This document shows positions 1-63,080 of a stretch of 64,000 nucleotides of DNA, in pieces; positions within the stretch are counted from its first letter, which is position 1, and each line of letters opens with the position of its first letter. The position numbers were made by a program, and so were the translations under genes. The stretch is from Rhododendron vialii (Eukaryota > Streptophyta > Magnoliopsida > Ericales > Ericaceae), in NCBI RefSeq assembly GCF_030253575.1, contig NC_080568.1:21723501-21787500 (forward strand), in the 5' to 3' direction. The notes below the pieces were generated by a model. That model was not told the origin of the DNA and made no database searches. It worked only from the letters and a program-made list of their open reading frames with translations.

Positions 1-607
1 CTATAAAGAGTATGATCTTATAGCTCTAGATTCTTGGAAAGGTACACTTGATAGCCACACTTCCACTGCGCACTCTGATTATCTTTCTCCCAAGTCGTTT
101 CTTCTCCCTTTTTCTCCCTTTTTTTTTTAAAGATATAGTTAACTGATCAGGTCGTCTCACATAAGAATTTAGCATCCTACCTCACCCTTTCCGTTAGATA
201 TAAAATAAAGTCTTAACGTTGATTGCTTTCTAGGACTCGCATTTCATAATTTCACACAATCTATTCTTTGCTTCTTGTGTAGTTTGTGACCACATTTTAA
301 CGTTTCACATCACCCATATTCACTAGAGCATCCTTCCATAAAGAGTGTTGGGTCTGAGATCATTACTAAACAAAGGCACGATGTCATTCAGTGTCCAAAA
401 GGATTTCCTCAGTGCCATTTAGACCACAAGGTAGTTTGACATTAATTCTTGTCTATCTCTAGACACTATTTTAAATGTGAGATCAACTTCAAGATAGAAC
501 AGACAAAACACATAAGGTACATAAAGTTGTGTAATCAAACTGTGAAGCTAGACTCCTAAAGCTCTGGGTTTTAAGAAATCCATAAACTAATGCTCTGATA
601 CCACTTC
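1..607 (-). mobile_element. 5' internal region and primer-binding site of an LTR retrotransposon (partial)
   Basis: Read on the minus strand, the LTR that ends at 608 is followed after four bases by a match to the tRNA-iMet primer-binding site TGGTATCAGAG (about 593-603). This is the standard arrangement at the start of an LTR-retrotransposon interior. Positions 1-592 should therefore be the untranslated or gag-proximal interior running leftwards out of the window. No gag frame is readable here. The element is cut by the window edge, so completeness is unknown. Confidence 0.6.
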
Positions 608-1818
608 TGTCACGACACAAAACCTACCTTGGAAGTCGTGACCGGCCAAGCGGGTGTTAAGCCGTCGAAGGCCTGCTCATAATCTAGTTTAGGGATTTCT
701 CACATCATTGTCATTTTAAACCATATAAGCAAAGTATGCGGAAGCGTAGAATAAATAACATAATCCCAGAACTTCTAAGTGTACAAGTATAATAATTACA
801 AACCATTAGGCTATACACGATTCTCCACGGTTATTCTAGCACCCGATTCAGTCCACAATTTGCCATCTACCTTAACCTGAAAAATTGTAAAAGGTTTTCA
901 TAAGCCGAAGCTCGGGTGAGAAACGTATACGAAAGTTACATGTTTGACCATGGAAATACCCCACATTATAAAACAGTTCAAAGCAACAATTCAAATATTT
1001 TGTTGACCATCTAGTACAAGCATTTTTGTCCGAAAGCTCATTTCTTCGGTCCAAGAGATGGACCCTTTTCATTTCATTTATTTTTCAACTTTTGCACTTT
1101 TGAGCGATAATAGCATTCAACGGTATTTTTGCCAGTCGGTTGGGGAGCGACCCCATTGAAGAGTGGTAAGATATCATTACTCGGTGATGCCTGGCTGCAT
1201 CTCCTACCTTATTACTTCACGCCGCTAGTATCTTTACCCATCCCCTAGCGCTCGGGACACCGTTCGGGTGAATCATATTATCACAAGCATGTACTAGCAA
1301 CCAGTAAAGTTCAAGTTTCCAAAACATATTGCCATGGTCTAATTTAACTTAAACTCAAAAGATTTATAAACCAGTCATCGCATGCATTAACATCAATTAA
1401 ACCAAGTAGGAGGTTCAAATTCCATATTTTCCAGCAAAATCAAGTAATGGCATCTCATTTCAAAATTTCAGAAAATACATGTAACTAAAGTATGCGCAAC
1501 TCACCAAAAAGGATGCGTCTAACTTGACGTGGCACCGAGCTAGCCCAAGGCACTAGTACCTATACAAAACGCATCACGAATTACTACTTGCCACAACTGT
1601 TTGAGCATGATCTAGGAATTAACTATAATTTCTTCATTACGTCGTCGGGGTCGGCATAAGGACTGTTTTTTTATAGTTCTAGAATGAAAGTATTACATAC
1701 TAAACCTATTATCCCTTCTGAAGTTATATATATGGGTACCAAATACACAAGTTTGGAACAAAATTCCCTCAGTTTACTAAAGTAGATGCGTAGAAGTTTA
1801 GCATAGTCTTAGATTAGT
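608..1818 (-). mobile_element. LTR (3' 1.2 kb) of a Gypsy-type retrotransposon, minus orientation
   Basis: This stretch is the reverse complement of about 21594-22808, with only scattered mismatches seen by eye along 1.2 kb. Its minus-strand end reads GTCGTGACA, a normal LTR CA terminus, followed directly by the primer-binding site. Homology stops abruptly at about 1818, although the LTR at 20768-22808 continues for another 0.8 kb. This copy is therefore truncated at its U3 end or has a different U3. It lies downstream of an AP-endonuclease first exon on the same strand and may sit in that gene's first intron. Confidence 0.75.
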
Positions 1819-20767: not shown

Positions 20768-22808
20768 TGTGAAATCCTACCTTTTCTAAAAAAATAAAAA
20801 GTAGTAGTTTAATCACATGGTCCGAATAGTAACCCAACTCACTGTATGAGTTACGCAACGATGGGATTTTATCTTAAAAATCCGACACCGCCACAATGAC
20901 CCTTAAATTATTATTAGTCTGTGTTGAATTTTTGGGATTTTTCGGAGACTGAAATCCAAATACGTTTGGTCTAGTTCGCGTTAACGGGACATGAAATTTA
21001 ATTTGCTGAGTCATGGGGATAGTAACAGGTGTCTTATTTTCATGTTGTACCTCCATGTTCCACCGAAGTATATATATGTGTATTGGGTAATTATTAAATT
21101 AGAGAACAAAACAAAAATGAGAGAGACTCCTGCCTAGTCTTTTTTTTTGCCGAGAATCCACCGTCGGGCCGCCTACCCGTTCCGTTTGTTTTCACCGAAG
21201 GATTTCTAAGCCCTTTTTGGTAATCCTTCTAACCCATTAATCTATTTATCATTCTCACTCATTAATCTATTTTATGGTTAGTAATAGGGCTTATGTATCT
21301 GTTTTTACTGAGGAAATAGAACTGGAGCAAAACTCTTGCAACACTCGCACACGCACGCGTACAGCATCAAGGAACGGCGGCCATGGCTGCCGACCAACTC
21401 GATCGACACCACTTCGGCCACTCTCTCTCACCTTTTTATAGCATCTTTTTCTCCTCTCGCATACGCAGCGCTCCAACCCCTAAAATTTTCACACAAGCGA
21501 AACCCCTATCGCATTTTAAGTAAATTATTTGCTGATTATTCACTGACTGATTATAAGCCTCAATTTAGGATATTGAATAGCAATTTGATTAAGCTAATCT
21601 AAGACTATGCTAAACTCCTACGCATCTACTTTAGTAAACTGTGGGAATTTTGTTCCAAACTTGTGTATTTGGTACCCATATATATAACTTCAGAAGGGAT
21701 AATAGGTTTAGTATGTAATACTTTCATTCTAGAACTATAAAAAAAACAGTCCTTATGCCGACCCCGACGACTTAATGAAGAAATTAGAGTTGATTCCTAG
21801 ATCATGCTCAAACAGTTGTGGCAAGTAGTAATTCGTGATGCGTTTTGTATAGGTACTAGTGCCTTGGGCTAGCTCGGTGCCACGTCAAGTTAGACGCATC
21901 CTTTTTGGTGAGTTGCGCATACCTTAGTTACATGTATTTTCTGAAATTTTGGAATGAGATGCCATTGCTTGATTTTGCTGGAAAATATGGAATTTGAACT
22001 TCCTACTTGGTTTAATTGATGTTAATGCATGCGATGACTGGTTTATAAATCTTTTGAGTTTAAGTTAAATTAGACCATGGCAATATGTTTTGGAAACTTG
22101 AACTTTACTGGTTGCTAGTACATGCTTGTGATAATATGATTCATCCGAACGGTGTCCCGAGCGCTAGGGGATGGGTAAAGATACTAGCGGCGTGAAGTAA
22201 TAAGGTAGGAGATGCAGCCAGGCATCACCGGGTAATGATATCTTACCACTCTTCAATGGGGTCGCTCCCCAACCGACTGGCAAAAATACCGTTGAATGCT
22301 ATTATTGCTCAAAAGTGCAAAAGTTGAAAAATAAATGAAATGAAAAGGGTCCATCTCTTGGACCGAAGAAATGAGCTAGCTTTCAGACAAAAATGCTTGT
22401 ACTGGATGGTCAACAAAATATTTGAATTGTTGCTTTGAACTGTTTTATAATGTGGGGTATTTCCATGGTCAAACATGTAACTTTCGTATATGTTTCTCAC
22501 CCGAGCTTCGGCTTATGAAAACCTTTTACAATTTTTCAGGTTAAGGTAGATGGCAAGTTGTGGACTGAATGGGGTGCTAGAATAACCGTGGAGAATCATG
22601 TATAGCCTAATGGTTTGTAATTATTATACTTGTACACTTAGAAGCTCTAGGATTATGTTATTTATTCTACGCTTCCGCATACTTTGCTTATATGGTTTAA
22701 AATGACAATGATGTGAGAAATCTCTAAACTAGATTTTGAGCATGCCTTCGGCGGCTTAACACCTGCTTGGCCGGTCACGACTTCCAAGGTAGGTTTTGGG
22801 TCGTGACA
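20768..22808 (+). mobile_element. 3' LTR (about 2.04 kb) of the Gypsy element
   Basis: It starts TGTGAAATCC right after the polypurine tract and ends GTCGTGACA. A TATA-like TTTTTATAGC lies near 21435. The last 1.2 kb matches 608-1818 in inverse orientation. No primer-binding site follows, as expected for a 3' LTR. A target duplication could not be tested because the 5' LTR is missing. Confidence 0.75.
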
Positions 22809-23933
22809 GCGAAATTGCTCACAAGTCACAACCCTACTGTATAGGTTATTCCGGATTTCTTTTACTTTTCTTTTTTTGGCAAGAAACTTGCTCGCGGCTG
22901 GGACTTGGGAGACGTAGGATATCGAAAGCCCAACAAAGCGGTAACTAAATATTGTGTATGCCGCAGCCACAAGTACTTGTTTCATTTGGAGAAATGGAAA
23001 CATTTCAAAACGACCATAAGGTTCTACACCCTAACAATCAATTCTTGAGATCAACATAACACTTTTCCCAAATGCAAATACACAAAGGTTATCATATTTT
23101 CTTTTCCATGGAATCATCTCCGTCCCGCTAGGTTTTTATTTTTTGAGTACCTATTTTCCGTTTTATGTGACAGATCATTTTCTCATAATACATCAAATAC
23201 AAAAACTTTCAATTAAATTATTTCAATAAAATATTTAATTACTGTCTTTGTAAATTCGGGGAGTTAAAAATGATGACATGATAATGTCGCTATTATTGCT
23301 GTAAAAGCTATATATAGGTTACGTAGATATCATGTTGATCACATCAGTAAATGTATGTCTAGTGTTCAATGTGCTTTTACCTGCTTTGAAGAAGATGGAG
23401 TGGAATTGGTACAGTGAAATCATGTAGGAACCACTGGCTAGTTGGTTGCCTACCACTCATCTCTTTAGGAGGTGGAGGTTTGAGCCCCTCTGTGGGCGGT
23501 TTGGGGTCAGGGCTATGGATAGTTCTTGCAATTTTTTGTGCTAATTCAACACACTCCGCTAACTATACCGTGTGGTAAAAAAAAATTCATGTTACATTTT
23601 CTTGACTCATACAAAACAGAACAAAAAGACTTGAGATATCCCGTTCTACTAAAAGAAATAAATACTTATTTGTTAAATAAAGTAAAATAATTACTTACTT
23701 TTAGAATTAAAAATAATATATTATAAAAAAATAACATATTTCATAAAATAAAAAATAAATATTTAAAAAATAATAACCTTAGCAAAATAGAACTAGCCCG
23801 CGACAAGGGAGACTTCTGTCAATCTGTCATGTCCGAAACCTAATTGTAAAAATTTCAGGGAAAGTTTGTAATTAACTACCATCCAGAAGCCTTATGCTGA
23901 GTTTTGCTTGCTCTGCTTCCCCAATTAACTGTA

Positions 23934-48129: not shown

Positions 48130-48207
48130 AAAAGGTTGGGTAGCTCGGTGGTAAAGAGTGGCGAGGGTTTTCAAGAGTTTCAGGGTTCGATTCCTCTCCT
48201 CTATAAT

Positions 48208-48210: not shown

Positions 48211-48245
<35 letters not shown>
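48211..48245. repeat. (TA)n tract at left edge of the viral locus
   Basis: About 17 TA units abut viral sequence, which starts at about 48244. The join reads through ATAT, so the exact base is ambiguous. TA tracts are reported flanks of endogenous florendoviruses. Confidence 0.9.
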
Positions 48246-48248
<3 letters not shown>

Positions 48249-49064
48249 ACTACCATTTGCAGAACTCAATTGTTCAGTTGTTTTGTGAAAATACATAATA
48301 GGAACCAAACCTTCTTGTATACAATTAAGGTCTGCTCCTGTGTCAATAAGAGCACTGACTTCTATTTGGAAATCACGTACTACTAATTTAACTTTAGTAT
48401 ACTATTTTTGGTAGCAATCCTGGTAATTAGTATCTTCTTCATTCTGAGCTTTTAACTGATTGTCAGATTCATTTAATTTGGTAATTCCTTTTTTAATAAG
48501 ATTAACCTCTTGTCTGAGATTTGGTACAGTAGTTTGTTTAATAGTTTGATTTGATTCTATTTTAGTAGGGGATTGACCAGGGGTGCTATGGGGAATAAAA
48601 TTCATTGTTTTCTTTGTGACTGTTGTAACTGTATTAACTTTTTTGTAATATTTTTCTAAGTAATGGAAAAAATAGATTTCGGTTCTTATTTCGTTCATAA
48701 AATTCTCCCATTGAGCAATTATCTTTGTTTGTCTAGATTGTGAATATTTACTAGCATAGTCTTTCCTTTTTTGTTTATTTTTCTTAGACTTAAATTCTTT
48801 GTATAATTTATCAAAATTAATTTCAAAATCTTTATGTAAAACGAGTAAACTTTGGTCAACTATTTCTTCAAAATCTGTTTGAGTTGGAGACCCTTGGGAG
48901 GTGTCTTCATCTTCAAATTTTGACTGGGTAGAATAACAGGGTTTACTAATTTGTGAGCTTGACTCAACGCCTTTTAGTTTAATGTTAGGGTCAAGCAAAT
49001 TTTTGTCTTTCTTAGGCTTGGTGACTGATCTGTCAATAGTAACTGAGCTATTTGACCGACTTAA
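48244..49064 (-). mobile_element. Endogenous pararetrovirus fragment, inverted (linker to protease)
   Basis: This is a reverse-complement copy of the stretch of unit Y at about 58271-59093. It covers the Lys-rich linker and the start of the aspartic protease (LIDTGAD region), then is cut off at the (TA)n tract. A 228-codon frame is open (48402-49088 minus). A Trp codon of the parent is TAG here, next to the YQDCYQ motif (about 48400). The right border joins a forward fragment through a shared GACTTAA. Confidence 0.85.
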
Positions 49065-50537
49065 CTGATAGGGTGATTTTAGGAACACCTTTTATTTGTT
49101 TACTTTATCCTTTTACAACTAATCACGAAGGAATTACCACTAAACCTTTTGGTCAACAAGTAATATTTAAATTTTTAACAAAATCAGAATTTCGTGAATT
49201 AAAGCAAATTAAAAACTACCATATACCTTCTTTAAATCAGAAAGAAAATCAACTAAGATTCCTACAGAATGAAATCAGATATAAATTAGTTGAACAATAC
49301 CTTACTGATAAAAATCTTAATCAAAAAATTGAACAATTTAAAGAAAAACTAGTAAAAGAAGTTTGTTCTAACCTTCCTAGTGCCTTTTGGCATCGGAAAA
49401 AGCACATAGTAAATCTCCCATACGTAAAAGAATTTAATGAAAATCAGATCCCTACAAAATTCAGACCTATTCAAATGAACCCTGAAGTAATGGAAACCTG
49501 CAAGAAAGAAATTAATGAATTACTAAGTAATAACATCATTCAAAAAAGTAAATCACCATGGTCGTGTCCAGCTTTCTATGTCAATAAAAATGCAGAAAAA
49601 GAAAGAGGCGTACCACGACTAGTTATTAATTACAAACTATTAAATGAAGTATTAAAATGGATCAGATACCCAATACCTAATAAAAAAAATTTAATCAACC
49701 GATTAAGCAATGCAGTAATCTTTTCAAAATTTGATTTAAAAAGTGGATTTTGGCAGATCCAGTTACATCCCAATGATAGGTACAAAACAGCATTTACTAC
49801 ACCTTTTGGACATTACGAATGGAATGTAATGCATTTTGGATTAAAAAATGCACCAAGTGAATTCCAAAATATCATGAATGAAATATTTAACCCATTCAGT
49901 CAATTCATCATTGTTTACATAGATGATGTTCTCATCTTTTCCAATACTATTGATGAACATTGGAAACACTTAAATACATTTGTCAATACCATTAAAAATA
50001 ATGGTTTAGTCATATCTGCCCTTAAAATTAAATTATTTCAAACTAAAATAAGATTTTTAGGATACGATATTCATCAGTCCACCATAGTACCAATTAGTAG
50101 AGCAATTCAATTTGCTGATAAATTTCCTGATGAAATTACTGACAAAAATCAATTGCAAAGATTTTTAGGATCTTTAAATTACATAGCAGAATTCTATAAA
50201 GATCTTAGGAAAACATGTCAACCCCTATTTGAAAGATTAAAAGACAAGCCCCCTCCTTGGTCATCCCTACACACTTCTATAGTCCAGCAAGTCAAAAAAT
50301 ATGTCAAGACATTACCATGTCTAGGTATTCCTACAGTCAATTCTTTTAAAGTTATCCAAACTGATGCCTCAGATATTGGTTATGGTGGTATCCTCCTCCA
50401 AAAAGTCAATTCTAGTTCCCCTGAACAAGTTGTTCGATTTCATTCTGGTCTATGGAATAAAGCACAAAGTAATTACAGTACTATTAAAAAAGAAATTTTA
50501 GCACTAGTCTTATGTATTTCAAAATTTCAAGATGATA
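49058..50537 (+). mobile_element. Endogenous pararetrovirus fragment: protease end, reverse transcriptase and RNase H start
   Basis: An open frame of 528 codons (49052-50638) corresponds to unit Y positions 59174-60653 and differs at only a handful of residues. It carries the protease C-terminal ILGTPF, the RT core (LVINYK, FDLKSGFWQI, YIDDVLIFS) and the RNase H start (TDASDIGYGGIL). Here the codon that is a stop in unit Y at 60542 is still sense (CAA). The frame is cut inside RNase H and joined to an inverted leader piece, so it is not functional. Confidence 0.9.
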
Positions 50538-51177
50538 GTAATTACTGGAACTGTAATTCAATTACTGAATTAAAACAGTACATGAATGGTTTACCGGTTT
50601 ACAAAGGAAGCTGGAGTAGATTGATACTCAGCAATTAACTGGGATAGAAGAGTATATTCAGAACTCTAATAACTTTGTAGAAGAGTATCTAAAATATCTC
50701 CGAGTTACTTGAGAGCAATGGGTATTATCAGAGTAGGGGAGAGAGATACAGAGTGGGAGGTGATGCAAAAGGAGGAGGTGACTGAGATATTTATAGAAAA
50801 GTGACTGAAGAAATCAATCAGTTAATCAACAATAGTAAAAGCAAAAGTTGAAAGTTGAATGATACGTTTAATTGAAAAGGAATCAATTATGAATAGTTAA
50901 ATCCGTGGGTGAATAGTACCATGAACAGTAATGAATAGTAATTCGGATGAATAGTGCAATTACTAGAACTTGTAATTGAGTATAGAATAACTTAATATGA
51001 ACAAAAGTATGAACCAAATGTAATTACTGGAACTGTAATTCAATTACTGAATTAAAACAGTACATGAATGGTTTACCGGTTTATAAAGGAAGCTGGAGTA
51101 GATTGATACTCAGCAATTAACTGGGATAGAAGAGTATATTCAGAACTCTAATTACAATGGATCCCTTTTCAAGACGT
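50538..51177 (-). mobile_element. Scrambled viral leader pieces with filler DNA
   Basis: 50538-50717 is the reverse complement of leader 56500-56669. 50718-51150 is the reverse complement of an overlapping, longer leader stretch (about 56540-56973). Between 51153 and 51177 are two tiny forward bits that match unit Y near 61114 (ACAATGGATCCCTTTTC) and unit X near 55998 (TTCAAGACGTG). This mosaic precedes the forward leader of unit X. Confidence 0.75.
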
Positions 51178-51198
51178 GTCTGTGCTTCCGCCCCCTTT

Positions 51199-51210
51199 TG
51201 GTATCAAAGC
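51199..51210 (+). promoter_or_regulatory. tRNA-iMet primer-binding site, unit X (one mismatch)
   Basis: TGGTATCAAAGC here, against TGGTATCAGAGC at 57006-57017. In Caulimoviridae this site primes minus-strand DNA synthesis and marks position 1 and the minus-strand gap of the circular genome. Confidence 0.85.
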
Positions 51211-51578
51211 CAAGTAGGAAATTGTTGAAGGATTAAACACTGAGTAAACTGTAAGTTGATTTGTTCCCCCTGATCTTTCGTTTAGTTATTTATTCCTGCT
51301 GTATTTTCAATTGGTAGATTAATTCTAGTTGCCTTCGGTCGAGCACCTTGCACTAGCCACCCACTTTGAGCCACCCTGTAGTAATCCGCAAAAGTCCCCG
51401 TGAGTAAGTCCCAGGTGGGCAGTTAGGGGTTGGGAAAAAACTTAGGGTATGTGTTCAGTAGGTTATGAGTATGTGTTAAGTGGGGTATGTCTTTATCAGG
51501 GTAATTTAGAGTTAAAATACTAAAAGAGAAGACTTTAAGAGTAAATTACTAAAAGAAGAATCTTTAGGAATAAACACA

Positions 51579-52410
51579 ATGAACAGATTATTCATGTGTA
51601 GTTCTTCAGCCAGTTCTTCAATGGCTAATTTATCTGAGTTGTCGGACATAGTCAACCAAGAAGAACATGAGTATCAAGATCTAGATATTCCCAAAATTCC
51701 AGTAAAAGAATCTCACGAATTTACATCACAAGTTAGTAAACCTAGTTACTCTACACAACCAATTCTACTTGTTTTACACAAAGACTTTGAAATTAATTTT
51801 GCTAAATTATACAAAGAATTTAAGTCAAAAGAAAATAAACAAAAAAGAAAAGACTATGCTAATAAATACTCACAATCTAGGCAAGCAAAGATAATTACTC
51901 AATAGGAAGATTTCATGAAAAATACAAGGACTGAAATCTACTTTTTCAAATACTTAGAAGATTTTTATAAAAAAGTCAACACTATTACAAAAACAAGATG
52001 GAGAAAATCAGATAACACCACTACAAACTCTAGTCATCCTCCCTTATAACCCATTATTATTGATTACAAAAATACATTTATTACTGCATCTCCATTCAAA
52101 TTACCCAGTGAAAGAATAGAATGCAAACAAATTGTTGAACAAATTAATTACACCAATCAATGTCTAAAAATCATAGGTAACCAATTAGATAAAATGAAAA
52201 CCAAAATTGATGAAAGATCTTTTTGCATTTTCCCATCCTCTAGTAAACAAATAGAAGCACCCCTTATACGTCTTCCAGAAAAGAGAGAAAATATTAACAT
52301 CAACCGGAATCAAAATATTCAAATGATTGATGACATACTAACAAAATTAACCATTAAATCTGAACAAGAGTCACCCCAAGTTTCTACGATCACAAAAAAA
52401 TTGTGACACT
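51579..52410 (+). pseudogene. Unit X ORF1, N-terminal part (shared peptide and linker), broken
   Basis: ATG 51579 opens a Ser-rich peptide (MNRLF-x-CSSSA, then LSELSDIVNQEEH) that is almost the same as in unit Y. It then jumps directly to the linker with FEINFAKLYKEFKSK. In unit Y the two blocks are separated by the movement protein. Breaks are a TAG at 51903-51905, a stop near 52048, and a frame change in the A-run near 52395, after which the coat protein frame begins. The linker is predicted coiled-coil and basic. Its function is unknown. Confidence 0.75.
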
Positions 52411-53856
52411 AGTACTTCTAGTCAAAAAGAAGAATCTTCTTCTGATGAAGAAATCACACAACTCCAAAACCAGTTCTCCAATCAAGGAATCAACCGTCTT
52501 ATTAATCCCTCAACTAACCATACCACTCTGACCAAAAATTGGTACTCTAGACCAACTCCTCCTGATTTACAATATGAGGAAAATAATCTATCCAATCAAT
52601 TTTCTGTTTCTTCTAATAAATTATATGAATGGAATATTGATGGCTTGAGTGAACACCAAATATTAGAAAAATTAAACCACATGTCAATGGCTGCTAACAG
52701 CTACTTAGGTAATACAGATCTCAATCAACTACAAATAGTTGATCTATTGACTTCTGGTTTCACTGGAATGTTAAAAGCATGGTGGGATAAATATCTCACC
52801 CATGAGTCACGAGAAGAAATTAAACATGCTGTCCAACTGAATGAAAATGGTCTCTCAATTTTTGACAACGAAATTGGAATGGGAGCACCAGATGGAATAA
52901 ATACTTTAATTTATACCATCATTAAACATTTTATTGGACAACCCAGTAACATTACTTCTAGGATACATGATCAACTAAGCAATTTGCATTGTCCAACATT
53001 AAGTGATTTTAGGTGGTACAAAGATGTTTTTACATCTAGAGTCATGCTCAGAGATGATTGTACAAAATCATTTTGGAAAGAAAAGTTTATTAATGGACTT
53101 CCTAATTTATTTGCTCACAAAATTAGGGATGTTCTTAGTCAACCAACAGGAGTCATTGAATATGATAAATTAACGTATGGTGACATTATTAGTACCATTC
53201 AAAAAGAAGGACTAAGAATGTGCATTGATATGAAAATTAGTAAACAAGCCCAGAAAGATAAAAATAAAGCCAAGTATGAGTTAGGAAACTTTTGTGAACA
53301 GTATGGTCTACCACCTGTAGCACCATCACGAAGGAAACCCAAACACCATACTAAACCAACCTACAATAGTAAGAATTATCGATACTCAAAAAATAGTAAA
53401 CCCAAATCATCTAAAGAAAAATATTACGAAAAACCCAAGAATCAAAAGAATAAAAAGAAGAATGATGACAAAAGTAACATTATGTGTTATAACTGTGGTA
53501 AAAAGGGACATTACAAAACTGAATGTAAAGTCCAAGCCAAAATCAGTCAACTAAATATATCTGATACTGATAAACAGCATATCTTGGAGATTTTCAGAAT
53601 TGCAAATCTAAACAATTCTGATGATGAAGAAGATATTAGTACATTCTCTGATTATCATTCCCTTAGTGAAAGTCCAAATGAAGATCAAATTAAAATTGGT
53701 TGTACTGATAATTGTTGTAAAAAATTAAATGTACTTACTAAAGAATTACCAGAAGAAGAATTATTAATTGATCTAATCAGCCGAATAGATGATTTAGAAT
53801 TAAAACAACAATATATTAAAAAACTCAAACAGCTCTTGTTACAACAAGGGAAATAA
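52411..53856 (+). pseudogene. Pararetrovirus coat protein with zinc knuckle (unit X)
   Basis: The frame is open from about 52410 to the stop at 53856 (over 470 codons). Coat-protein-like core segments include GMLKAWWDKYLT, LSDFRWYKDVF and FWKEKFINGLP. A basic Lys-rich tract (53330-53480) and a CCHC zinc knuckle, C-x2-C-x4-H-x4-C at 53485-53526, follow. An acidic tail comes last. In the family this protein builds the capsid and binds RNA. Unlike the rest of unit X, the core shows no internal stop. Its upstream frame is shifted relative to the ORF1 start, so no full polyprotein can be read. Confidence 0.85.
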
Positions 53857-54577
53857 CCCCAATACAATAAACCAACAGTAAGCCTCAATGCTACTATAGA
53901 ACGTTTTAATAAAATTAATAAAGAAGTCACTCTGCATGATTTACAGCATGAAATAAAAACTTATTAAAATAGAAATTACAAAGATTAAAAACCAACTTCC
54001 GACATTAGCACTAACTAACAAATTCCTCAGAAAAAAGAAAGACAGTTCATCTTCTGAAGAAACCTTCGAAGTTGATACTCAAAATCCCAGCCAAGAAAAA
54101 GATATTGACCACCCAAACAGTGATCAAGATATTGACCAACCCAACAGTAACCATAATAGTCACAGATTAAGTATAATCAATCAAATAAACATACAGAAAT
54201 GGCATGCCCGTATTAAATTGATAATAGGTGATTATAAAATACAAGTTACTGCTCACATCGATACAGGAGCAGATTTAAATTGTATTCAGGAAAGTTTGAT
54301 ACCTGTTAAATATTATCAAGAAATAACTGAACGATTAAGTTCTGCAAATGGAAGTAAAATGATAATTAAATACAAATTACCCGAAGTCAATATTTGCCAA
54401 AATAAAATTGGTTTCAAAACCTCTTTTGTTTTAGTCAAAAATTTAACTGACAAAGTAATTCTAGGAATGCCCTTCATTTATTTACTCTATCCATTCACAG
54501 TCACCAGTAACAACATCATGTCTTGTGATCAACAAGTCACTTTTGAATTTTATCAACACCAGACAAAAATGAACTAA
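53857..54577 (+). pseudogene. Unit X protease region, frame-broken, without reverse transcriptase
   Basis: After the coat frame stop (53854-53856) a further open stretch reaches another stop near 53963 and then shifts frame. Acidic repeats (about 54080-54160, QDIDQPNS-like) precede QKWHARIKL and the aspartic protease motif DTGAD (54260-54274), with ILGMPF near 54460. The frame ends at 54577. In unit Y the same point continues into reverse transcriptase; here the RT and RNase H are absent. Confidence 0.8.
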
Positions 54578-54631
54578 GTCAATTGCAAAATTGCTCTATT
54601 TATCCTACTAATGATTCATTTGATTATTTTA

Positions 54632-56208
54632 CAGATGGCTCAAAGTCAACAGAAAACAATTCCATTTGGGAAAATCCTTCTGTCTGTATTCCCTGAAGGA
54701 GCAAGCACAAAATTTAGGAAGCTAAATTACTTAAAGAGCATGGATGAAACCCAACAATGTCTTCTGGATAACCTCTGGAATACGAAAGGGGATCACCATA
54801 ATTATTAGACAGCTTAAATTGTTTAAGTATTTATTTTAATCAGCAAACTAGTGGAGTTGTTTTCCCTAGTTTTCTTGATGGAGTTTTAATTAACCCATCT
54901 TTAGTCAGCACTAGTTCATCTACTAACCTCCTTTCTTGTAAGCATTGTGATTCAATGACTTGCAAATATTTTGATTTAAACTGCAGGTATTACCAGCAGT
55001 CAACTGAAAATAATCAGCTCAAAGCAGAACTCACTACATTGAAGAATCAGTCAATTGAAGCCAAGAAGACCTCTTTTACCCCACTGGTAAAAGAAGAGAA
55101 AAAACTATCATCCCCACTGGATGATAGTAAAGGGGTACATGTGCAGTCATCCCTACTGGATGATGGTGAAAGCGTAAGTGTATTTGAAATTTTTCAAAAA
55201 AAAACTTTCAAAACCATAGCTTTACCACAATCCTAATTCCTACTCCCCAAGTCACTACCATTAGATGTAGTGAGCCACATTCAACATTTGGCCAGGCAAT
55301 CTGGTCACCATTTTCAAGAATTCCTATTTGAAACCCTTACTAAATTAGCCAGTCAACCAACCCCAGGATTATCAATCACTTGGGAAACTCACTATAATGA
55401 AAATCAAGACCGAGTTAACTGCCCCAAAACTAATCCTCTATGTTTAGAAATACCTCTAGAAAGGTATGATTGTCCTTGCCAGTTAATATTCAGCATCCCC
55501 CAAGCCTGCATCCATATGCAACACTTCCAAGACCTTGTCCTTCCATACAAAGGCCAAGATATTCAAATCAGCCCAATGACCCTATTAGACCATGGTTTTC
55601 TTAAACAACTCATTTTTACTGACCCAGACCAAACTGACCGAGTCACTAGAAAGTTAGCCATATGTGTCAACAATGTCTTCAATAAACATAGGGCAATGAA
55701 ATGCCAGGTTTTAATCTCTAGTAAAATGCCCGAATGGACAAACACAGGGAATGTGATACTAGCACAACATATCATGTATCTCTCTACTAATTGGCCTTTT
55801 AGCAAGATACATGCACCTATTAATCTTATTGAAGATGAATGCCCATGGCTTTGTTCTGCACCCATTAGAGCACAGATCAGACATCACAGGGCAAAGTCAA
55901 TTGCGAGTAATCTTGGAAATGAGGATTATTTCCAAGAAGGAAGGTATCACTTAATTTGTGAAGATCTTGTTCAAAAAATCAAGTCCACTGATCCTCTTCA
56001 AGACGTGCCATTTATTTTTTATACAAAATTCCAAAACTTAGTCAAAGACTACAAGTTCTACTGGGATCATAACATGAATCCCCTATCCGAAGATGACCAA
56101 GCATCCAGCCCGGATTGCCTAGAAATGAATGAAGACAACGGGCAAGATTATTGGGATAATCTTCCAAGTGAAGAATTGCAGAATTTAGACAACATGATGG
56201 AGTCCTAG
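54632..56208 (+). pseudogene. Unit X second ORF, unknown function, broken
   Basis: The likely start is ATG 54632 (MAQSQQKTIPFG). Breaks are a stop at 54806-54808, a frame change before 54955, and a TAA at 55234-55236. The last 312 codons (55270-56208) are open. A coiled-coil-like stretch (ENNQLKAELTTLKNQ) lies near 55000, followed by a region rich in Cys, His and Trp and an acidic C-terminus. It is not visibly related to the second ORF of unit Y. No family was recognised. Confidence 0.7.
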
Positions 56209-56421
56209 TTAACAACCAATTATCACTTTTGGCCCAACAGTCAGCAGTCAATTATTGCTTTTGACCATCTGCACCGAAAGCAGCAACAGTCATCAATTAT
56301 TTCTACTTTTGGTCCTACCAGCACCGAAAGCAGAGCCAGTTATCTACTTTAGTCATCATTTCTCCACCGAAAGGAGAAAAGTCACGAGATTGAATTATTT
56401 GTAATACTCAGGACCTTAGTC

Positions 56422-56428
56422 TATAAAA
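56422..56428 (+). promoter_or_regulatory. Viral TATA box, unit X
   Basis: CTATAAAAGG lies about 30 bp before a conserved start region. Upstream, ACCGAAAGxAG motifs repeat (56270-56375), resembling enhancer repeats, and the same arrangement occurs before 62467. Confidence 0.7.
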
Positions 56429-56454
56429 GGATCCAAGAGTAATGTAGTAAGGGA

Positions 56455-57385
56455 GGCAATTAGAGCCAATTACAGAGTTAATTGCATACTTGCTCTCAAG
56501 TAACTCAGAGATATTTTAGATACTCTTCTACAAAGTTATTAGAGTTCTGAATATACTCTTCTATCCCAGTTAATTGCTGAGTATCAATCTACTCCAGCTT
56601 CCTTTGTAAACCGGTAAACCATTCATGTACTGTTTTAATTCAGTAATTGAATTACAGTTCCAGTAATTACTTTTGGTTCATATTTTTGTTCATATTAAGT
56701 TATTCTATACTCAATTACAAGTTCTAGTAATTGCACTATTCATCCGAATTACTATTCATTACTGTTCATGATACTATTCACCCACGGATTTAACTATTCA
56801 TAATTGATTCCTTTTCAATTAAACGTATCATTCAACTTTCAACTTTTGCTTTTACTATTATTGATTAACTGATTGATTTCTTTAGTCATTTTCTATAAAT
56901 ATCTCAGTCACCTCCTCCTTTTGGATCACCTCCCACTCTGTATCTCTCTCCCCTACTCTGATAATACCCATGTTCCTCTAATGTGTCTGTGCTTCCGCCC
57001 CCTCTTGGTATCAGAGCCAAGTAGGAAATTGTTGAAGGATTAAACACTGAGTAAACTGTAAGTTGATTTGTTCCCCCTGATCTTTCGTTTAGTTATTTAT
57101 TCCTGCTGTATTTTCAATTGGTAGATTAATTCTAGTTGCCTTCGGTCGAGCACCTTGCACTGGCCACCCACTTTGAGCCACCCTGTAGTAATCCGTAAAA
57201 GTCCCCGTGAGTAAGTCCCAGGTGGGCAGTTAGGGGTTGGGAAAAAACTTAGGATATGTGTTCAGTAGGTTATGGGTATGTGTTAAGTGGGGTATGTCTT
57301 TATCAGGGTAATTTAGAGTTAAAATACTAAAAGAGAAGACTTTAGGAGTAAATTACTAAAAGAAGAATCTTTAGGAATAAACACA
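56455..57385 (+). promoter_or_regulatory. Pararetroviral leader with perfect primer site (57006-57017), X/Y junction
   Basis: The leader runs from the presumed start near 56455 through the primer site TGGTATCAGAGC to the ORF1 ATG at 57386. The half before the primer site belongs to unit X and the half after to unit Y. The two are joined without any break at the primer site. The same leader recurs at about 51178-51578 and 62500-63056, and inverted at 50538-51150. Confidence 0.8.
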
Positions 57386-60300
57386 ATGAACAGATTATTC
57401 AAGTGTAGTTCTTCAGCCAATTCTTCAAAGGCTAATTTATCTGAGTTGTCGGACATAGTCAACCAAGAAGAACATGTGTATCAAGATCTAGATACATGAT
57501 TAACTAATTGGAATATTCTCAAAATCCCAGTAAAAGAGATTAACAAATCAAGTTTCTTAGATGATACTTTTCGCACGGATCAAGTAGCAAAAACTGCAAA
57601 ACATGTTTATGCTATTACTAAACAAGAAGAACGATGTTCTCTTCTTAGTCAACAATCAATTAAAAGACACCTCGAAAGAGGATATAAATATATTCATGTA
57701 GGATTAATACAAGTAGCTATTAAACCACTTACAAGAAAAGGATTAAATTCCTCAGTATTACTATCTCTAAGAGATAGCAGATTCACAATCTATAGTGATA
57801 GTTTGTTAGGATTAATGGAGTCAAGCCTACATAATGGTCCAGTTTACTTCAACTGCTACCCCGATTTACCCCTTAGTTTAAATGACAAGAATATTTTAAA
57901 AGCATTAACTTTAAATATCCAAACTGCTGGTGCAATCACTCAAATGCTTGAAGGAAGTCAGTCCATTGCATTAATCTATCGTCTTTATTACAAATGTATG
58001 AAAACTAATTTAAATATTCACGCATTAGTCAAAAGTCCAAAAGACAAAACTGTCCTTATTCAAAGTAGAACAAATGCCAATATTCAAGTGCCCAAAATCA
58101 TTTCTTGGAATGACATCCAGTTACCAGCTAGTTGGCTTAGTGAAAATGATAGTTTCCCACAGAAACTCCAAAATGACACGATTGATCTAGATTATATTCA
58201 ACAATACCTAGATGGTACGGTTAGGATAAGTTTTGATCAACAAAGAACAAACCCTCCTCTGAGAATCAAAGAATTAAGTCGGTCAAATAGCTCAGTTACT
58301 ATTGACAGATCAGTCACCAAGCCTAAGAAAGACAAAAATTTGCTTGACCCTAACATTAAACTAAAAGGCGTTGAGTCAAGCTCACAAATTAGTAAACCCT
58401 GTTATTCTACCCAGTCAAAATTTGAAGATAAAGACACCTCCCAAGGGTCTCCAACTCAAACAGATTTTGAAGAAATAGTTGACCAAAGTTTACTCGTTTT
58501 ACATAAAGATTTTGAAATTAATTTTGATAAATTATACAAAGAATTTAAGTCTAAGAGAAATAAACAAAAAAGGAAAGACTATGCTAGTAAATATTCACAA
58601 TCTAGACAAACAAAGATAATTGCTCAATGGGAGAATTTTATGAACGAAATAAGAACCGAAATCTATTTTTTCCATTACCTAGAAAAATATTACAAAAAAG
58701 TTAATACAGTTACAACAGTCACAAAGAAAACAATGAATTTTATTCCCCATAGCACCCCTGGTCAATCCCCTACTAAAATAGAATCAAATCAAACTATTAA
58801 ACAAACTACTGTACCAAATCTCAGACAAGAGGTTAATCTTATTAAAAAAGGAATTACCAAATTAAAAGAATCTGACAATCAGTTAAAAGCTCAGAACGAA
58901 GAAGATACTAATTATCAGGATTGCTACCAAAAATGGTATACTAAAGTTAAATTAGTAGTACGTGATTTCCAAATAGAAGTCAGTGCTCTTATTGACACAG
59001 GAGCAGACCTTAATTGTATACAAGAAGGTTTGGTTCCTACTATGTATTTTCACAAAACAACTGAACAATTGAGCTCTGCAAATGGTAGTAAAATGCAAAT
59101 TAATTATAAATTACCCAAAGTACATATTTGTCAAGATGAAGTTTGCTTTAGAACTTCTTTTGTGTTACTCCAAGACTTAACTGATAGGGTGATTTTAGGA
59201 ACACCTTTTATTTGTTTACTTTATCCTTTTATAACTAATCACGAAGGAATTACCACTAAACCTTTTGGTCAACAAGTAATATTTAAATTTTTAACAAAAC
59301 CAGAATTTCGTGAATTAAAGCAAATTAAAAACTACCATATACCTTCTTTAAATCAGAAAGAAAATCAACTAAGATTCCTACAGAATGAAATCAGATATAA
59401 ATTAGTTGAACAATACCTTACTGATAAAATTCTTAATCAAAAAATTGAACAATTTAAAGAAAAACTAGTAAAAGAAGTTTGTTCTAACCTTCCTAGTGCC
59501 TTTTGGCATCGAAAAAAGCACATAGTAAATCTCCCATACGTAAAAGAATTTAATGAAAATCAGATCCCTACAAAATCCAGACCTATTCAAATGAACCCTG
59601 AAGTAATGGAAACCTGCAAGAAAGAAATTAATGAATTACTAAGTAATAACATTATTCAAAAAAGTAAATCACCATGGTCGTGTCCAGCTTTCTATGTCAA
59701 TAAAAATGCAGAAAAAGAAAGAGGCGTACCACGACTAGTTATTAATTACAAACCATTAAATGAAGTATTAGAATGGATCAGATACCCAATACCTAATAAA
59801 AAAGATTTAATCAACCGATTAAGCAATGCAGTAATCTTTTCAAAATTTGATTTAAAAAGTGGATTTTGGCAGATCCAGTTACATCCCAATGATAGGTACA
59901 AAACAGCATTTACTACACCTTTTGGACATTACGAATGGAATGTAATGCATTTTGGATTAAAAAATGCACCAAGTGAATTCCAAAATATCATGAATGAAAT
60001 ATTTAACCCATTCAGTCAATTCATCATTGTTTACATAGATGATGTTCTCATCTTTTCCAATTCTATTGATGAACATTGGAAACACTTAAATACATTTGTC
60101 AATACCATTAAAAATAATGGTTTAGTCATATCTGCCCCTAAAATTAAATTATTTCAAACTAAAATAAGATTTTTAGGATACGATATTCATCAGTCCACCA
60201 TAGTACCAATTAGTAGAGCAATTCAATTTGCTGATAAATTTCCTGATGAAATTACTGACAAAAATCAATTGCAAAGATTTTTAGGATCTTTAAATTACAT

Positions 60301-60862
60301 AGCAGAATTCTATAAAGATCTTAGGAAAACATGTCAACCCCTATTTGAAAGATTAAAAGACAAGCCCCCTCCTTGGTCATCCCTACACACTTCTATAGTC
60401 CAGCAAGTCAAAAAATATGTCAAGACATTACCATGTCTAGGTATTCCTACAGTCAATTCTTTTAAAGTTATCCAAACTGATGCCTCAGATATTGGTTATG
60501 GTGGTATCCTCCTCCAAAAAGTCAATTCTAGTTCCCCTGAATAAATTGTTCGATTTCATTCTGGTCTATGGAATAAAGCACAAAGTAATTACAGTACTAT
60601 TAAAAAAGAAATTTTAGCACTAGTCTTATGTATTTCAAAATTTCAAGATGATATATTAAACCAAAAGTTTTTAGTCAAAATTGATTGTAAAAGTGCGAAA
60701 TATGTTCTGGAACAAGATGTTAAGAACATAGTTAGTAAACAGATCTTTGCCAGGTGGCAGTCAATTTTAAATATTTTTGATTTTGATATTGAATATATTA
60801 AGGAAGACCAAAATTCTATCCCTGATTTTCTTACCAGAGAATTTTTATTTAACAAATCATAA
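57386..60862 (+). pseudogene. Unit Y polyprotein: movement protein, protease, reverse transcriptase, RNase H
   Basis: One frame of 1159 codons has two in-frame stops, TGA at 57497-57499 and TAA at 60542-60544. Domains in order are the shared Ser-rich N-terminal peptide, a 30K-family movement protein (about 57560-58130, with SLHNGPVYFNCYP and LNDKNILKALTLN), and a Lys-rich linker (58270-58940). The aspartic protease follows (DTGAD at 58994-59008, ILGTPF). The reverse transcriptase (YIDD at 60032-60043) and RNase H (TDASDIGYGG, IDCKSAKY, PDFLTREF) come last. In Caulimoviridae such proteins move the virus between cells and copy the genome. No coat domain is present where it would lie in a single-component relative. 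The copy is non-functional as it stands. Confidence 0.92.
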
Positions 60863-60947
60863 AAAGTACTTCTCAGCTATTTAAAGCCATTTTCCAGCAG
60901 CATTCATTATTCATCATACTTACAAACAACCCAATTTTAGTCTTACA

Positions 60948-62217
60948 ATGACAGACAAAAGCAAGAATCCAGCTTTACTTACAAAAAACCAGCTCGCACT
61001 CCCTCCAGCAGATTGCGGCAACAAGTACCAAGTTCTTGGGCAAATCCCCAAGACCAGTTACAGTTCTGCACTTGCATACACTCCTTTCTCTAGTCACATT
61101 ATTACACCATCCACAATGGATCCCTTTTCTTCAAACCAGTCCATCCAGCTAAGTCAACCAAAATTTACTTACCCAGCAAGCACCACTGAATATGTTCTCA
61201 AATCAGTTGCAAACCAATTTATTTTCCATTGAATCAGTCCACAAAAATATTCACAGCCCCCTCGAATTAGTCAAAGCCTTTTTTCCTCCGGGTTGGCATT
61301 TCATTCCTGCTCACCCAGATAAAACCTTTTTTTTTTACAAAGACATTCTTCTCCACCACAAGTCAATTGTAATCAAACCTATTACTGATAGAGTCAATCC
61401 AAATAAAGTCATTTACCATTCCCTCTACATTCACAATATAGTCAGTCTTGATGAATGGGGACACCCATCTTTGCTCAGAAATCTTCCTGGTCACCCAATT
61501 CAATATAATTACTACGATTATATTGATTCTTGGTTCAAAGTCATCCTCCATGAAAATGAATCATTTACCCACTCTTGGTTTTTCTCATTTGATCACAAAT
61601 TCAAATCGGTAATTCCGTCTTGGTTCTCCAGATGGTGGCACCAAAATGGAGCCATTCCTGAACTATTACCAATTGAACTTATGGATCAAGTCAACTATTT
61701 TTCCACTTTATACCCAACCAACCATCACACTGGTCAATTTCCTATTCTCCTACTATTCATGGCAAAATACAAGGTACCATGGATCTTCAAATGGCGATAC
61801 AGCATCAATAACAAAACAGTTACTCGCCAGTATTTGGTAAAATGGTGGGGTGCATTCAAGCATCATCGCATCATTGAACAAGTCAAAGAAGAATTCCCAG
61901 TCAAAGTCCCAACTCCAGTCAAAACTCCAGTTCCAATTACACAGGTTCACCCGAATAAACAGAAGTCAGTTCTTCCTGAACCAAGTTCACCAACATTTTC
62001 TACAATTAGACTTGGAAGTCCAACTCCAAGTTCTCTCATACAGTCAAAATCCAAGTCAAAAACCAAGTGTTCACAATTATTGATGTTAGCTCAACAATTA
62101 ATTGCTCAAGCCAGTCAAGAAGAAGAAGACAATTCATCTGAAGAATCAGTCACAGCAACATCTTGCAAAAACCCATATCGATCTGCTTTTCAAGATGCTC
62201 AAGACCCATTTGCCTAA
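60948..62217 (+). pseudogene. Unit Y second ORF, unknown function, one frameshift
   Basis: ATG 60948 opens MTDKSKNPALLTKNQ. The frame moves by one near 61220 and then runs to 62217 (about 420 codons in all). The central part is aromatic-rich (PPGWHFIPAHPDK, SWFSRWWHQNGA, WIFKWRY, YLVKWWGAF). A Pro/Gln/Ser-rich tail ends in an acidic stretch. WKWxY plus VKWWxxF pairs occur in other plant endogenous pararetrovirus second ORFs, but the role is unknown. It shares no visible similarity with the unit X second ORF. Confidence 0.72.
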
Positions 62218-62466
62218 ACAAAATGGCATAGTCAATTATTCAGCAGTCAATTATTGCTTCATTCTCCACCAAAAAGCACCAACAGTCAGCAGTCAATTAT
62301 TACTTTTGACTATCTACACCGAAAGCAGCAACAACAACCAATTATTTCCGCTTCTGGTCCTACCAGCACCGAAAGCAGGGCTAGTCACCTACTTTAGTCA
62401 TCATTTCTCCACCGAAAGGGGAAAAGTCACATGCTAGTACTATTTGTAATACTCGGGACCTTAGTC

Positions 62467-63056
62467 TATAAAAGGATCCAAGAGTAATGTAGTAGGAGGA
62501 GGCAATTAGAGCCAATTACAGAGTTAATTGCATACTTGCTCTCAAGTAACTCAGAGATATTTTAGACACTCTTCTACAAAGTTATTAGAGTTCTGAATAT
62601 ACTCTTCTATCCCAGTTAATTGCTGAGTATCAATCTACTCCAGCTTCCTTTGTAAACCGGTAAACCATTCATGTACTGTTTTAATTCAGTAATTGAATTA
62701 CAGTTCCAGTAATTACTTTTGGTTCATACTTTTGTTCATATTAAGTTATTCTATACTCAATTACAAGTTCTAGTAATTGCACTATTCATCCGAATTACTA
62801 TTCATTACTGTTCAGTTACTATTCACCTACGGATTTAACTATTCATAATTGATTCCTTTTCAATTAAACGTATCATTCAACTTTCAACTTTTGCTTTTAC
62901 TATTGTTGATTAACTGATTGATTTCTTCAGTCACTTTTCTATAAATATCTCAGTCACCTCCTCCTTTGGATCACCTCCCACTCTGTATCTCTCTCCCCTA
63001 CTCTGATAATACCCATGTTCCTCTACTGTGTCTGTGCTTCTGCCCCCTTTTGGTAT
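62467..63056 (+). promoter_or_regulatory. Terminal viral promoter and leader, ending in the primer site
   Basis: A TATAAAA at 62467-62473 is followed by a full leader copy almost equal to 56455-57005. Viral sequence stops at TGGTAT (63051-63056), inside the primer site, and passes into a TA tract. ACCGAAAGxAG repeats lie just upstream (62300-62420). Confidence 0.8.
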
Positions 63057-63080
63057 ATATATATACATATATATATATAA
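63054..63080. repeat. TA tract at right edge of the viral locus
   Basis: An interrupted TA run directly follows the truncated primer site, mirroring the (TA)n at the left edge. Confidence 0.85.

What the first reader, a model, noticed from the sequence alone, without database searches (positions are those of the whole stretch)
51199..63056. Two complementary pararetrovirus units in tandem, consistent with a bipartite viral genome
Unit X has coat protein and protease but no movement protein or RT. Unit Y has movement protein, protease, RT and RNase H but no coat protein. Both share leader, N-terminal peptide, linker, protease and promoter, and each has its own second ORF. Neither could spread alone, yet together they cover the whole caulimovirid gene set. 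Bipartite genomes have been proposed for some florendoviruses; I do not recall this exact division of genes and cannot check. The alternative is one ancestral genome with two different large deletions, but the clean unit borders and distinct second ORFs argue against that.
Basis: partly seen in the sequence, partly recalled or inferred. Interest (0 to 1): 0.93.

Follow-up and report, generated by a model that had tools for sequence, protein, structure and literature searches.

The report
Two-part extinct plant virus, fossilised
A plant chromosome holds two complementary halves of an old DNA virus, one with the shell protein and one with the copying and movement genes, and the same two halves recur elsewhere in that genome, which supports a virus that lived as two cooperating pieces.

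Summary
X (51176-57005) has coat protein, protease and an ORF2, no movement protein or RT; Y (57006-63056) has movement protein, protease, RT, RNase H and another ORF2, no coat protein. Both lie in one insertion (48244-63056) between TA repeats. The host genome supports a two-component virus. The X layout is legible at seven other loci. Of 16 close coat copies, 0 have a movement-gene match upstream. Of 104 coat copies, 0 have an RT match within 4 kb downstream; of 50 movement-RT pairs, 0 enclose a coat match (capped lists). X and Y proteases differ by 26% on average, while leader and intergenic region are intermixed. B-side proteases of three lineages group together, so the split looks older than the lineages; the A side is unresolved. 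Genes compared between lineages show purifying selection. Deletion is also true, but ancient: X keeps both edges of the lost movement gene. Bipartite florendoviruses were proposed in 2014. New here are the division (movement protein only on the RT part), X's distinct ORF2, and evidence that the split lasted. No RT tree with named genera was possible.

The parts
48211..48245 (.). (TA)n tract at the left edge of the compound insertion
48244..51155 (.). rearranged block of Y-type pieces: 48244-49064 inverted, 49058-50537 direct, 50537-50718 and 50718-51155 inverted
   Evidence: 98-99% to Y
51176..57005 (+). Unit X, coat-protein component (B-type), 5.81 kb from primer site to end
   Evidence: layout recurs at L010-L013 and L015-L018
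51199..51210 (+). tRNA-Met primer binding site of X, one difference from the Y copy
   Evidence: name of the site after Geering 2014 and recall
51579..51905 (+). X ORF1 start: N-terminal peptide, both edges of the lost movement gene, start of the linker (DUF7588)
52351..53856 (+). X coat protein: DUF7746, Caulimovir_coat_dom, zinc knuckle
53957..54577 (+). X aspartic protease region
54802..56208 (+). X ORF2 (one in-frame stop); no detectable likeness to Y ORF2
56422..57005 (+). TATA box and presumed transcribed leader of X, near-identical to Y from about 56394-56466 onward
57006..63056 (+). Unit Y, RT component (A-type), 6.05 kb
57006..57017 (+). tRNA-Met primer binding site of Y and X/Y junction
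57500..58420 (+). Y movement protein region
   Evidence: PF01107 E 2.8e-16
58421..58720 (+). Y linker (DUF7588)
58937..59470 (+). Y aspartic protease
59471..60862 (+). Y reverse transcriptase and RNase H (interrupted by an in-frame stop)
60885..62217 (+). Y ORF2, in two frames; related to an ORF2 of the distant one-unit virus
62467..63051 (+). TATA box and presumed transcribed leader of Y; the leader folds better than 100 of 100 shuffles
63053..63080 (.). (TA)n tract at the right edge

Best explanation
X and Y are endogenous copies of the two genome components of one bipartite pararetrovirus of florendovirus type. Y (component A) supplied reverse transcriptase, RNase H and movement protein; X (component B) supplied the coat protein; both carried a protease, promoter, leader and primer site, so each could be transcribed and copied by the RT made from Y and packaged by the coat protein made from X (inferred). 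The 5' leader and intergenic region were kept alike by exchange between components, most likely template switching during reverse transcription, since the shared tract starts near the TATA box (inferred). The split arose by old losses from a one-unit ancestor and looks older than at least three lineages; in this lineage the B component then also lost the movement gene, so neither unit was self-sufficient. Joined copies were captured together in a TA repeat, probably during break repair (inferred from the flanks and Geering et al. 2014), and are now decayed.
For: Layout X legible in 8 of 12 fetched copies with at least 94% coat identity (7 loci), with no MP or RT match inside those 8 units. CP copies at 94% or more: 0 of 16 with an MP match upstream; at 80-87%: 49 of 65. 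MP copies at 93% or more: 0 of 18 with CP downstream. RT within 4 kb downstream of CP: 0 of 104; MP-RT pairs with CP between: 0 of 50. Protease distance X-X 4.6%, Y-Y 3.0%, X-Y 26.4%; transcribed intergenic region 6.3, 5.6, 5.5%; leader 4.6, 5.5, 4.8%. Protease tree: the 12 B-side proteins of three lineages group (96/93), apart from the one-unit relative. dN/dS between lineages 0.05-0.17 for CP, ORF2x, MP, AP, RT, ORF2y. Eight head-to-tail X-Y or Y-X junctions, by position, at six loci of this lineage.
Against: No virus particles or free DNA were seen. The genome searches score only the best candidates (103 of 1432, 129 of 680, 132 of 6694), so a rare one-unit copy could be missed. The A side is not a clade in the protease tree (7% of bootstraps). 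The selection estimates cover the branch before X lost its movement gene as well as after. A helper virus with a complete genome cannot be excluded; a distant complete relative does exist in this genome. Only one A and one B copy each were fetched for the second and third lineages.
Confidence: 0.83

Rival explanations
1. X, Y or both are defective genomes of one or more complete viruses that acted as helper, with no obligate partnership between X and Y.
For: A complete one-unit relative lies in the same genome. Geering et al. 2014 also say a helper cannot be discounted.
Against: The complete relative is far off (RT 69%, CP 33-34%) and its leader did not match. No complete copy of this lineage was found. 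X and Y share the leader, and coat gene and ORF2 of the B side stayed under purifying selection between lineages, which a defective genome riding on a helper's coat protein would not need; that constraint may in part date from before X's present layout.
Confidence: 0.1
2. X and Y are deletion products of two different complete virus species that met in one plant and exchanged leaders.
For: Proteases differ by 26% while leaders match.
Against: A pair with a similar protease gap occurs in the sister lineage (A' and B' proteases 72.9% alike, leader plus movement region 96.6%), and the B-side proteases of three lineages group together. Meeting and deleting in the same way several times is unlikely.
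Confidence: 0.05
3. X and Y are recent deletions of one integrated genome within the host chromosome.
For: Clean edges and tandem layout.
Against: Protease dS 0.92 with dN/dS 0.29 between X and Y, against RT dS 0.007 between two Y-type copies at this locus; the X layout recurs at seven other places of the genome.
Confidence: 0.01
4. X-type and Y-type units spread mainly as paired retroelements inside the genome, with Y's RT copying X, and infection between plants plays no part.
For: High copy number and tandem arrays in a sister lineage.
Against: Movement protein and coat protein were kept under purifying selection between lineages, and no integrase family was listed.
Confidence: 0.06

Closest known systems
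Putative bipartite florendoviruses (VvinBV, VvinDV, OsatBV, Sorghum bicolor virus; Geering et al. 2014, PMC4241990, section on bipartite genomes read in full)
   Same: Component A without coat protein, component B without RT; near-identical intergenic regions; 5.5-6.9 kb; compound insertions; TA repeats at the edges.
   Different: There component B carries MP and its C-terminal extension is like the ORF2 of A; here X has no MP, and its ORF2 shows no detectable likeness to Y's. There only the N-terminal part of RNase H is said to be missing from B; none of it was found in X.
Sister A/B lineage in the same genome (L031, L032)
   Same: Same division of CP and RT, same two ORF2 families, shared leader.
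   Different: MP on both components (98.3% alike), longer shared tract.
One-unit relative in the same genome (L029, L030)
   Same: MP, CP with DUF7746, AP, RT, RNase H in the florendovirus order.
   Different: All genes in one unit; MP in a frame of its own, which recalls Glycine max virus of Geering 2014; RT 69%, CP 33-34%.
Bipartite florendoviruses of sugar beet (Schmidt et al. 2021)
   Same: Reported as bipartite, as cited in PMC10377300 (passages).
   Different: Paper not held, so the layout could not be compared.

Membership tests
Caulimoviridae (endogenous) | MP, CP with zinc knuckle, AP, RT, RNase H without integrase; tRNA-Met primer site | tested here: met
   across the two units together
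Florendovirus (tentative genus) | RT groups inside the florendovirus clade | not testable with these tools
   no named caulimovirid references reachable; protein search off, viral contigs gave none
Florendovirus (tentative genus) | gene order MP-CP-AP-RT-RH with an ORF2 unlike known proteins | tested here: met
   order inferred from X plus Y and seen in L029; the ORF2s reach no Pfam cut-off
Florendovirus (tentative genus) | insertion next to TA repeats (typical, not exclusive) | tested here: met
Bipartite florendovirus sensu Geering 2014 | two complementary components, A without CP and B without RT | tested here: met
Bipartite florendovirus sensu Geering 2014 | intergenic region above 90% identical between components | tested here: met
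   95.4% over 779 nt
Bipartite florendovirus sensu Geering 2014 | component B carries MP | tested here: not met
   X has none; met in the sister-lineage copy L031
Bipartite florendovirus sensu Geering 2014 | component B C-terminal extension homologous to ORF2 of A | tested here: inconclusive
   BLASTP E 0.22; 68 of 500 shuffles as good; profile comparison probability 0.1 with shallow alignments
Bipartite florendovirus sensu Geering 2014 | part of RNase H left in component B (implied by the paper's wording) | tested here: not met
   no RNase H hit in X at E up to 1

The most novel reading that the evidence does not exclude
A reverse-transcribing DNA virus lineage was bipartite for a long time, not as a failed side branch: the A/B split is older than at least three lineages, the two parts were held together by concerted evolution of their common region, and the partition went further with time, from movement protein on both parts to movement protein on one. 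One host genome keeps the whole series, including a distant one-unit relative.
Probability: 0.7. Interest if true: 0.78.

Novelty: new variant of a known kind. Interest (0 to 1): 0.68.

Why it matters
As far as the papers I saw go, bipartite pararetroviruses are known only as integrated copies, and the 2014 report left open a helper virus and called them perhaps unsuccessful attempts. Here the protease, present on both parts, works as an internal clock: it shows that the parts diverged long ago, while the common region stayed shared. That makes the question testable in any plant genome with A and B copies. It also gives a case of stepwise partition of a retroelement genome.

Tried and rejected
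Recent deletion inside the chromosome: rejected by protease divergence. Homology of the two ORF2s: not found by BLASTP, shuffles or profile comparison; a distant link is not excluded because the alignments are shallow. A coat-region scrap in Y's own spacer: shuffles reach the score 697 of 2000 times, so no; a scrap is seen only in the sister copy L032. Structure prediction of both ORF2s gave mean pLDDT 33.6 and 40.3, so no fold search was made. Viral contigs held no relative of CP, either ORF2 or RT. Host species: not named by the tools; 13 contigs and 532.6 Mb recall a Rhododendron assembly from memory, unproven; one search searched that name with pararetrovirus words, and in its listing I saw no title on this virus. 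A paper search on recombination in cauliflower mosaic virus gave nothing used (listing only). In one search a rounded count (25 of 1065) was used in one test; one search repeats it with the true 20 of 1059. One search had one sister-lineage leader (L023) in the leader table; one search leaves it out.
Full report
What is there. One viral insertion spans 48244-63056. Its left edge abuts a (TA)n tract (48211-48245) and its right edge runs into another (63053-63080). From left to right it holds a scrambled block of Y-type pieces (48244-51155), unit X (51176-57005) and unit Y (57006-63056). X and Y are head to tail and meet at Y's tRNA-Met primer site. The array starts 23 nt before X's primer site and ends about 6 nt into a next one, so both ends lie near the primer site. 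Elsewhere the window holds plant-type exons, with Peptidase_C78 and STICHEL domains (2 of 4 frames tested).

Gene content. X: N-terminal peptide, linker (DUF7588), coat protein (DUF7746, Caulimovir_coat_dom, zinc knuckle), protease, ORF2. Y: nearly the same N-terminal peptide, movement protein, linker, protease, RT, RNase H, a different ORF2. By tblastn X has no RT, RNase H or MP core, and Y has no coat protein. X does keep both edges of the movement-gene region, side by side: 3 of 2000 shuffles reach the score of the front edge, 0 of 2000 that of the back edge.

Two kinds of divergence at the locus itself. The X and Y proteases share 68 of 119 residues, with dS 0.92 and dN/dS 0.29; the linker has dS 0.43 and dN/dS 0.17 (48 codons); the N-terminal peptide has no synonymous and 5 nonsynonymous changes in 57 codons. 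Two Y-type RT copies at this locus differ at dS 0.007. Differences between X and Y in the protease lean to third codon positions (21, 13, 34); those in the N-terminal peptide (0, 5, 0) and between the two Y-type RT copies (3, 3, 2) do not. The left block holds two overlapping intergenic pieces: over 435 columns X-Y differ at 5, X-left at 8, Y-left at 6; over 182 columns at 1, 1 and 2. So the common region was close to identical when the DNA was captured, although the coding parts had long diverged. Taken over leader and core intergenic region, X-Y differ at 20 of 1059 sites, somewhat more than the two Y-type copies in coding sequence (22 of 2301; Fisher p 0.03), which tells slightly against perfect identity. 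The shared tract begins between 56394 and 56466 (2 log-likelihood units), around the TATA box (56422) and the expected transcript start; upstream of 56422 X and Y differ at 22 of 188 sites, downstream at 14 of 584, gaps counted. The presumed transcribed leader folds better than 100 of 100 shuffles in both units (z -3.5 for Y, -3.9 for X). This fits exchange at the RNA level, by template switching, which is an inference.

The host genome. The window lies in a 532.6 Mb genome of 13 contigs. The CP query found 104 matches, the MP query 129, the RT query 132, the window's own copies included; only the best candidates are scored (103 of 1432, 129 of 680, 132 of 6694), so counts are lower bounds. 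By position, CP copies of at least 94% identity have an MP match within 2.5 kb upstream in 0 of 16 cases; of 88-93% in 3 of 14; of 80-87% in 49 of 65; below 80% in 1 of 9 (the MP query may miss the MP of the most distant lineage). MP copies of at least 93% have a CP downstream in 0 of 18. An RT match lies within 4 kb downstream of 0 of 104 CP copies (two at about 4.08 kb, presumably in the next unit). MP lies 1.19-1.65 kb upstream of 50 of 132 RT copies, and CP lies between in 0 of those 50. In the one-unit relative the gap from CP to RT is about 1.0 kb, so such a layout would have been seen. One oddity: in L009 an RT scrap of 92 residues abuts the upstream side of a CP in a scrambled stretch.

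Twenty CP copies were fetched with 9 kb each (ranks 2-19 of the list plus the partial copies at ranks 25 and 26, of 104). Twelve have at least 94% CP identity. In eight of these the unit is legible from leader to ORF2, with the nearest CP match 846-880 bp behind the leader and no MP between (L010-L013, L015-L018); L015 and L018 overlap and are one compound locus, so these are seven loci besides the window. The other four are scrambled (L009), cut before the leader (L014) or bare CP pieces with 99.8% identical flanks (L027, L028). Two more fetched copies without MP (L021, L022) and four with MP (L019, L023, L026, and L025 with a part) belong to related B-type lineages; L020 and L024 were not legible. 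Flanks: four of the eight legible X copies (L010, L015, L017, L018) show no non-viral stretch of 300 bases; among the other stretches, matches above 150 bases were 66-96% identical and at most 611 bases long, and some may be unmasked viral sequence, apart from the pair L027/L028. By position, Y is followed by X with 3.93-4.01 kb from RT to CP at five loci, and X by Y at three including the window; two loci show both, so these are eight junctions at six loci. Of 16 X-type CP copies, 9 have a Y-type gene within 9 kb.

Component identity across loci. Protease p-distance: X-X 4.6% (45 pairs), Y-Y 3.0% (3), X-Y 26.4% (30, from 25.2 to 27.6%). Transcribed intergenic region: X-X 6.3% (36), Y-Y 5.6% (6), X-Y 5.5% (36). 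Leader of this lineage: X-X 4.6% (28), Y-Y 5.5% (10), X-Y 4.8% (40). Within a compound locus the X and Y intergenic regions are closer than the between-locus mean: 1.8, 5.1, 1.9 and 2.4% against 5.8% for 32 pairs from different loci; conversion after capture could contribute to that.

Sister lineages. A B-type copy (L031) has leader, MP, CP, protease and the X-type ORF2; an A-type copy (L032) has leader, MP, protease, RT, RNase H and the Y-type ORF2, plus a 62-residue scrap of coat-gene sequence before the protease (81% over 101 nt with L031). L031 and L032 are 96.6% alike over 1780 nt of leader and MP region and 89.7% over 515 nt of the intergenic side, but 72.9% in the protease, where dS is 1.7 and dN/dS 0.13. 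A third lineage (L033, L034) has a copy of each side, alike over 102 nt at the start of the reading frame; L033 also lacks MP between N-terminal peptide and linker. In the protease tree the 12 B-side proteins of these lineages group together (96/93; 93% of bootstraps); the five A-side proteins are unresolved outside them (a clade in 7%), and the one-unit relative is far away. In the CP tree the copies without MP, other than L033, form one side of a branch (98/98), inside MP-bearing copies if L033 and L031 are the root. So the A/B split looks older than the lineages, and MP was lost from B later, at least once and perhaps twice. Against this, A-side monophyly is not shown and L033 sits on a long branch in both trees.

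Selection. Between lineages dN/dS is 0.096-0.118 for CP, 0.167 for the X-type ORF2, 0.11 and 0.15 for the X and Y proteases, 0.10 for MP, 0.05 for RT, 0.14 for the Y-type ORF2. The genes compared were therefore useful while the lineages diverged. These are simple Nei-Gojobori estimates from single copies, without error bars, and they do not single out the time after X lost its movement gene.

The one-unit relative. Forty-six of the 132 RT copies are below 75% identity. Two of the 46 were fetched (L029, L030): MP in a frame of its own, then CP, AP, RT and RNase H in one frame, 69% in RT and 33-34% in CP. In L030 a second, inverted copy has behind its RNase H an ORF that matches Y's ORF2 (25%, E 4e-22); L029 gave no ORF2 match, and X's ORF2 matched neither locus. 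Y thus seems to have kept the ancestral ORF2, and X has another one, or one changed beyond recognition.

What is known. Geering et al. 2014 (PMC4241990; section on bipartite genomes read in full; other passages by word search) described components A and B of florendoviruses in grapevine, rice and sorghum, with near-identical intergenic regions, compound insertions and TA flanks, and noted that a helper could not be discounted. PMC10377300 (passages) adds sugar beet; that paper is not held. PMC9719215, PMC5766536, PMC13308828, PMC11359110 and PMC9794742 were read in passages only. In the listings and passages that I saw from the paper searches there was no description of a B component without MP or of a protease test of the A/B split; subscription papers are mostly not held, so this is no proof of novelty.

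Verdict. The deletion reading is also right for the deep past. Genus membership rests on layout and flanks, not on an RT tree.

Noticed in passing
G000, sister lineage: The sister lineage occurs in tandem and mixed arrays with many long uninterrupted frames (30 of 129 MP matches lie in frames of 1250 residues or more with a CP downstream), pointing to recent amplification.
   Followed up: partly
window 48136-48200: A tRNA-like stretch with A-box-like and B-box-like motifs (motifs recalled) sits just left of the TA tract; ARAGORN calls no tRNA, so it may be a SINE.
   Followed up: partly
window 607-1817 and 21594-22809: A 1.2 kb inverted repeat pair at 97% identity, with a tRNA-Met primer-like motif on the minus strand at 603; probably pieces of a retrotransposon.
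   Followed up: no
L027 and L028: Two stretches on contig C6 about 191 kb apart with 99.8% identical flanks, a segmental duplication or an assembly duplicate.
   Followed up: no
L029, L030: A distant one-unit pararetrovirus with the movement protein in its own frame; 46 RT matches below 75% identity may belong to it or its kin (2 of 46 looked at).
   Followed up: partly
window 51447-51574 and 57255-57381: Short tandem repeats (22 and 29 nt units) in the leader of both units.
   Followed up: no
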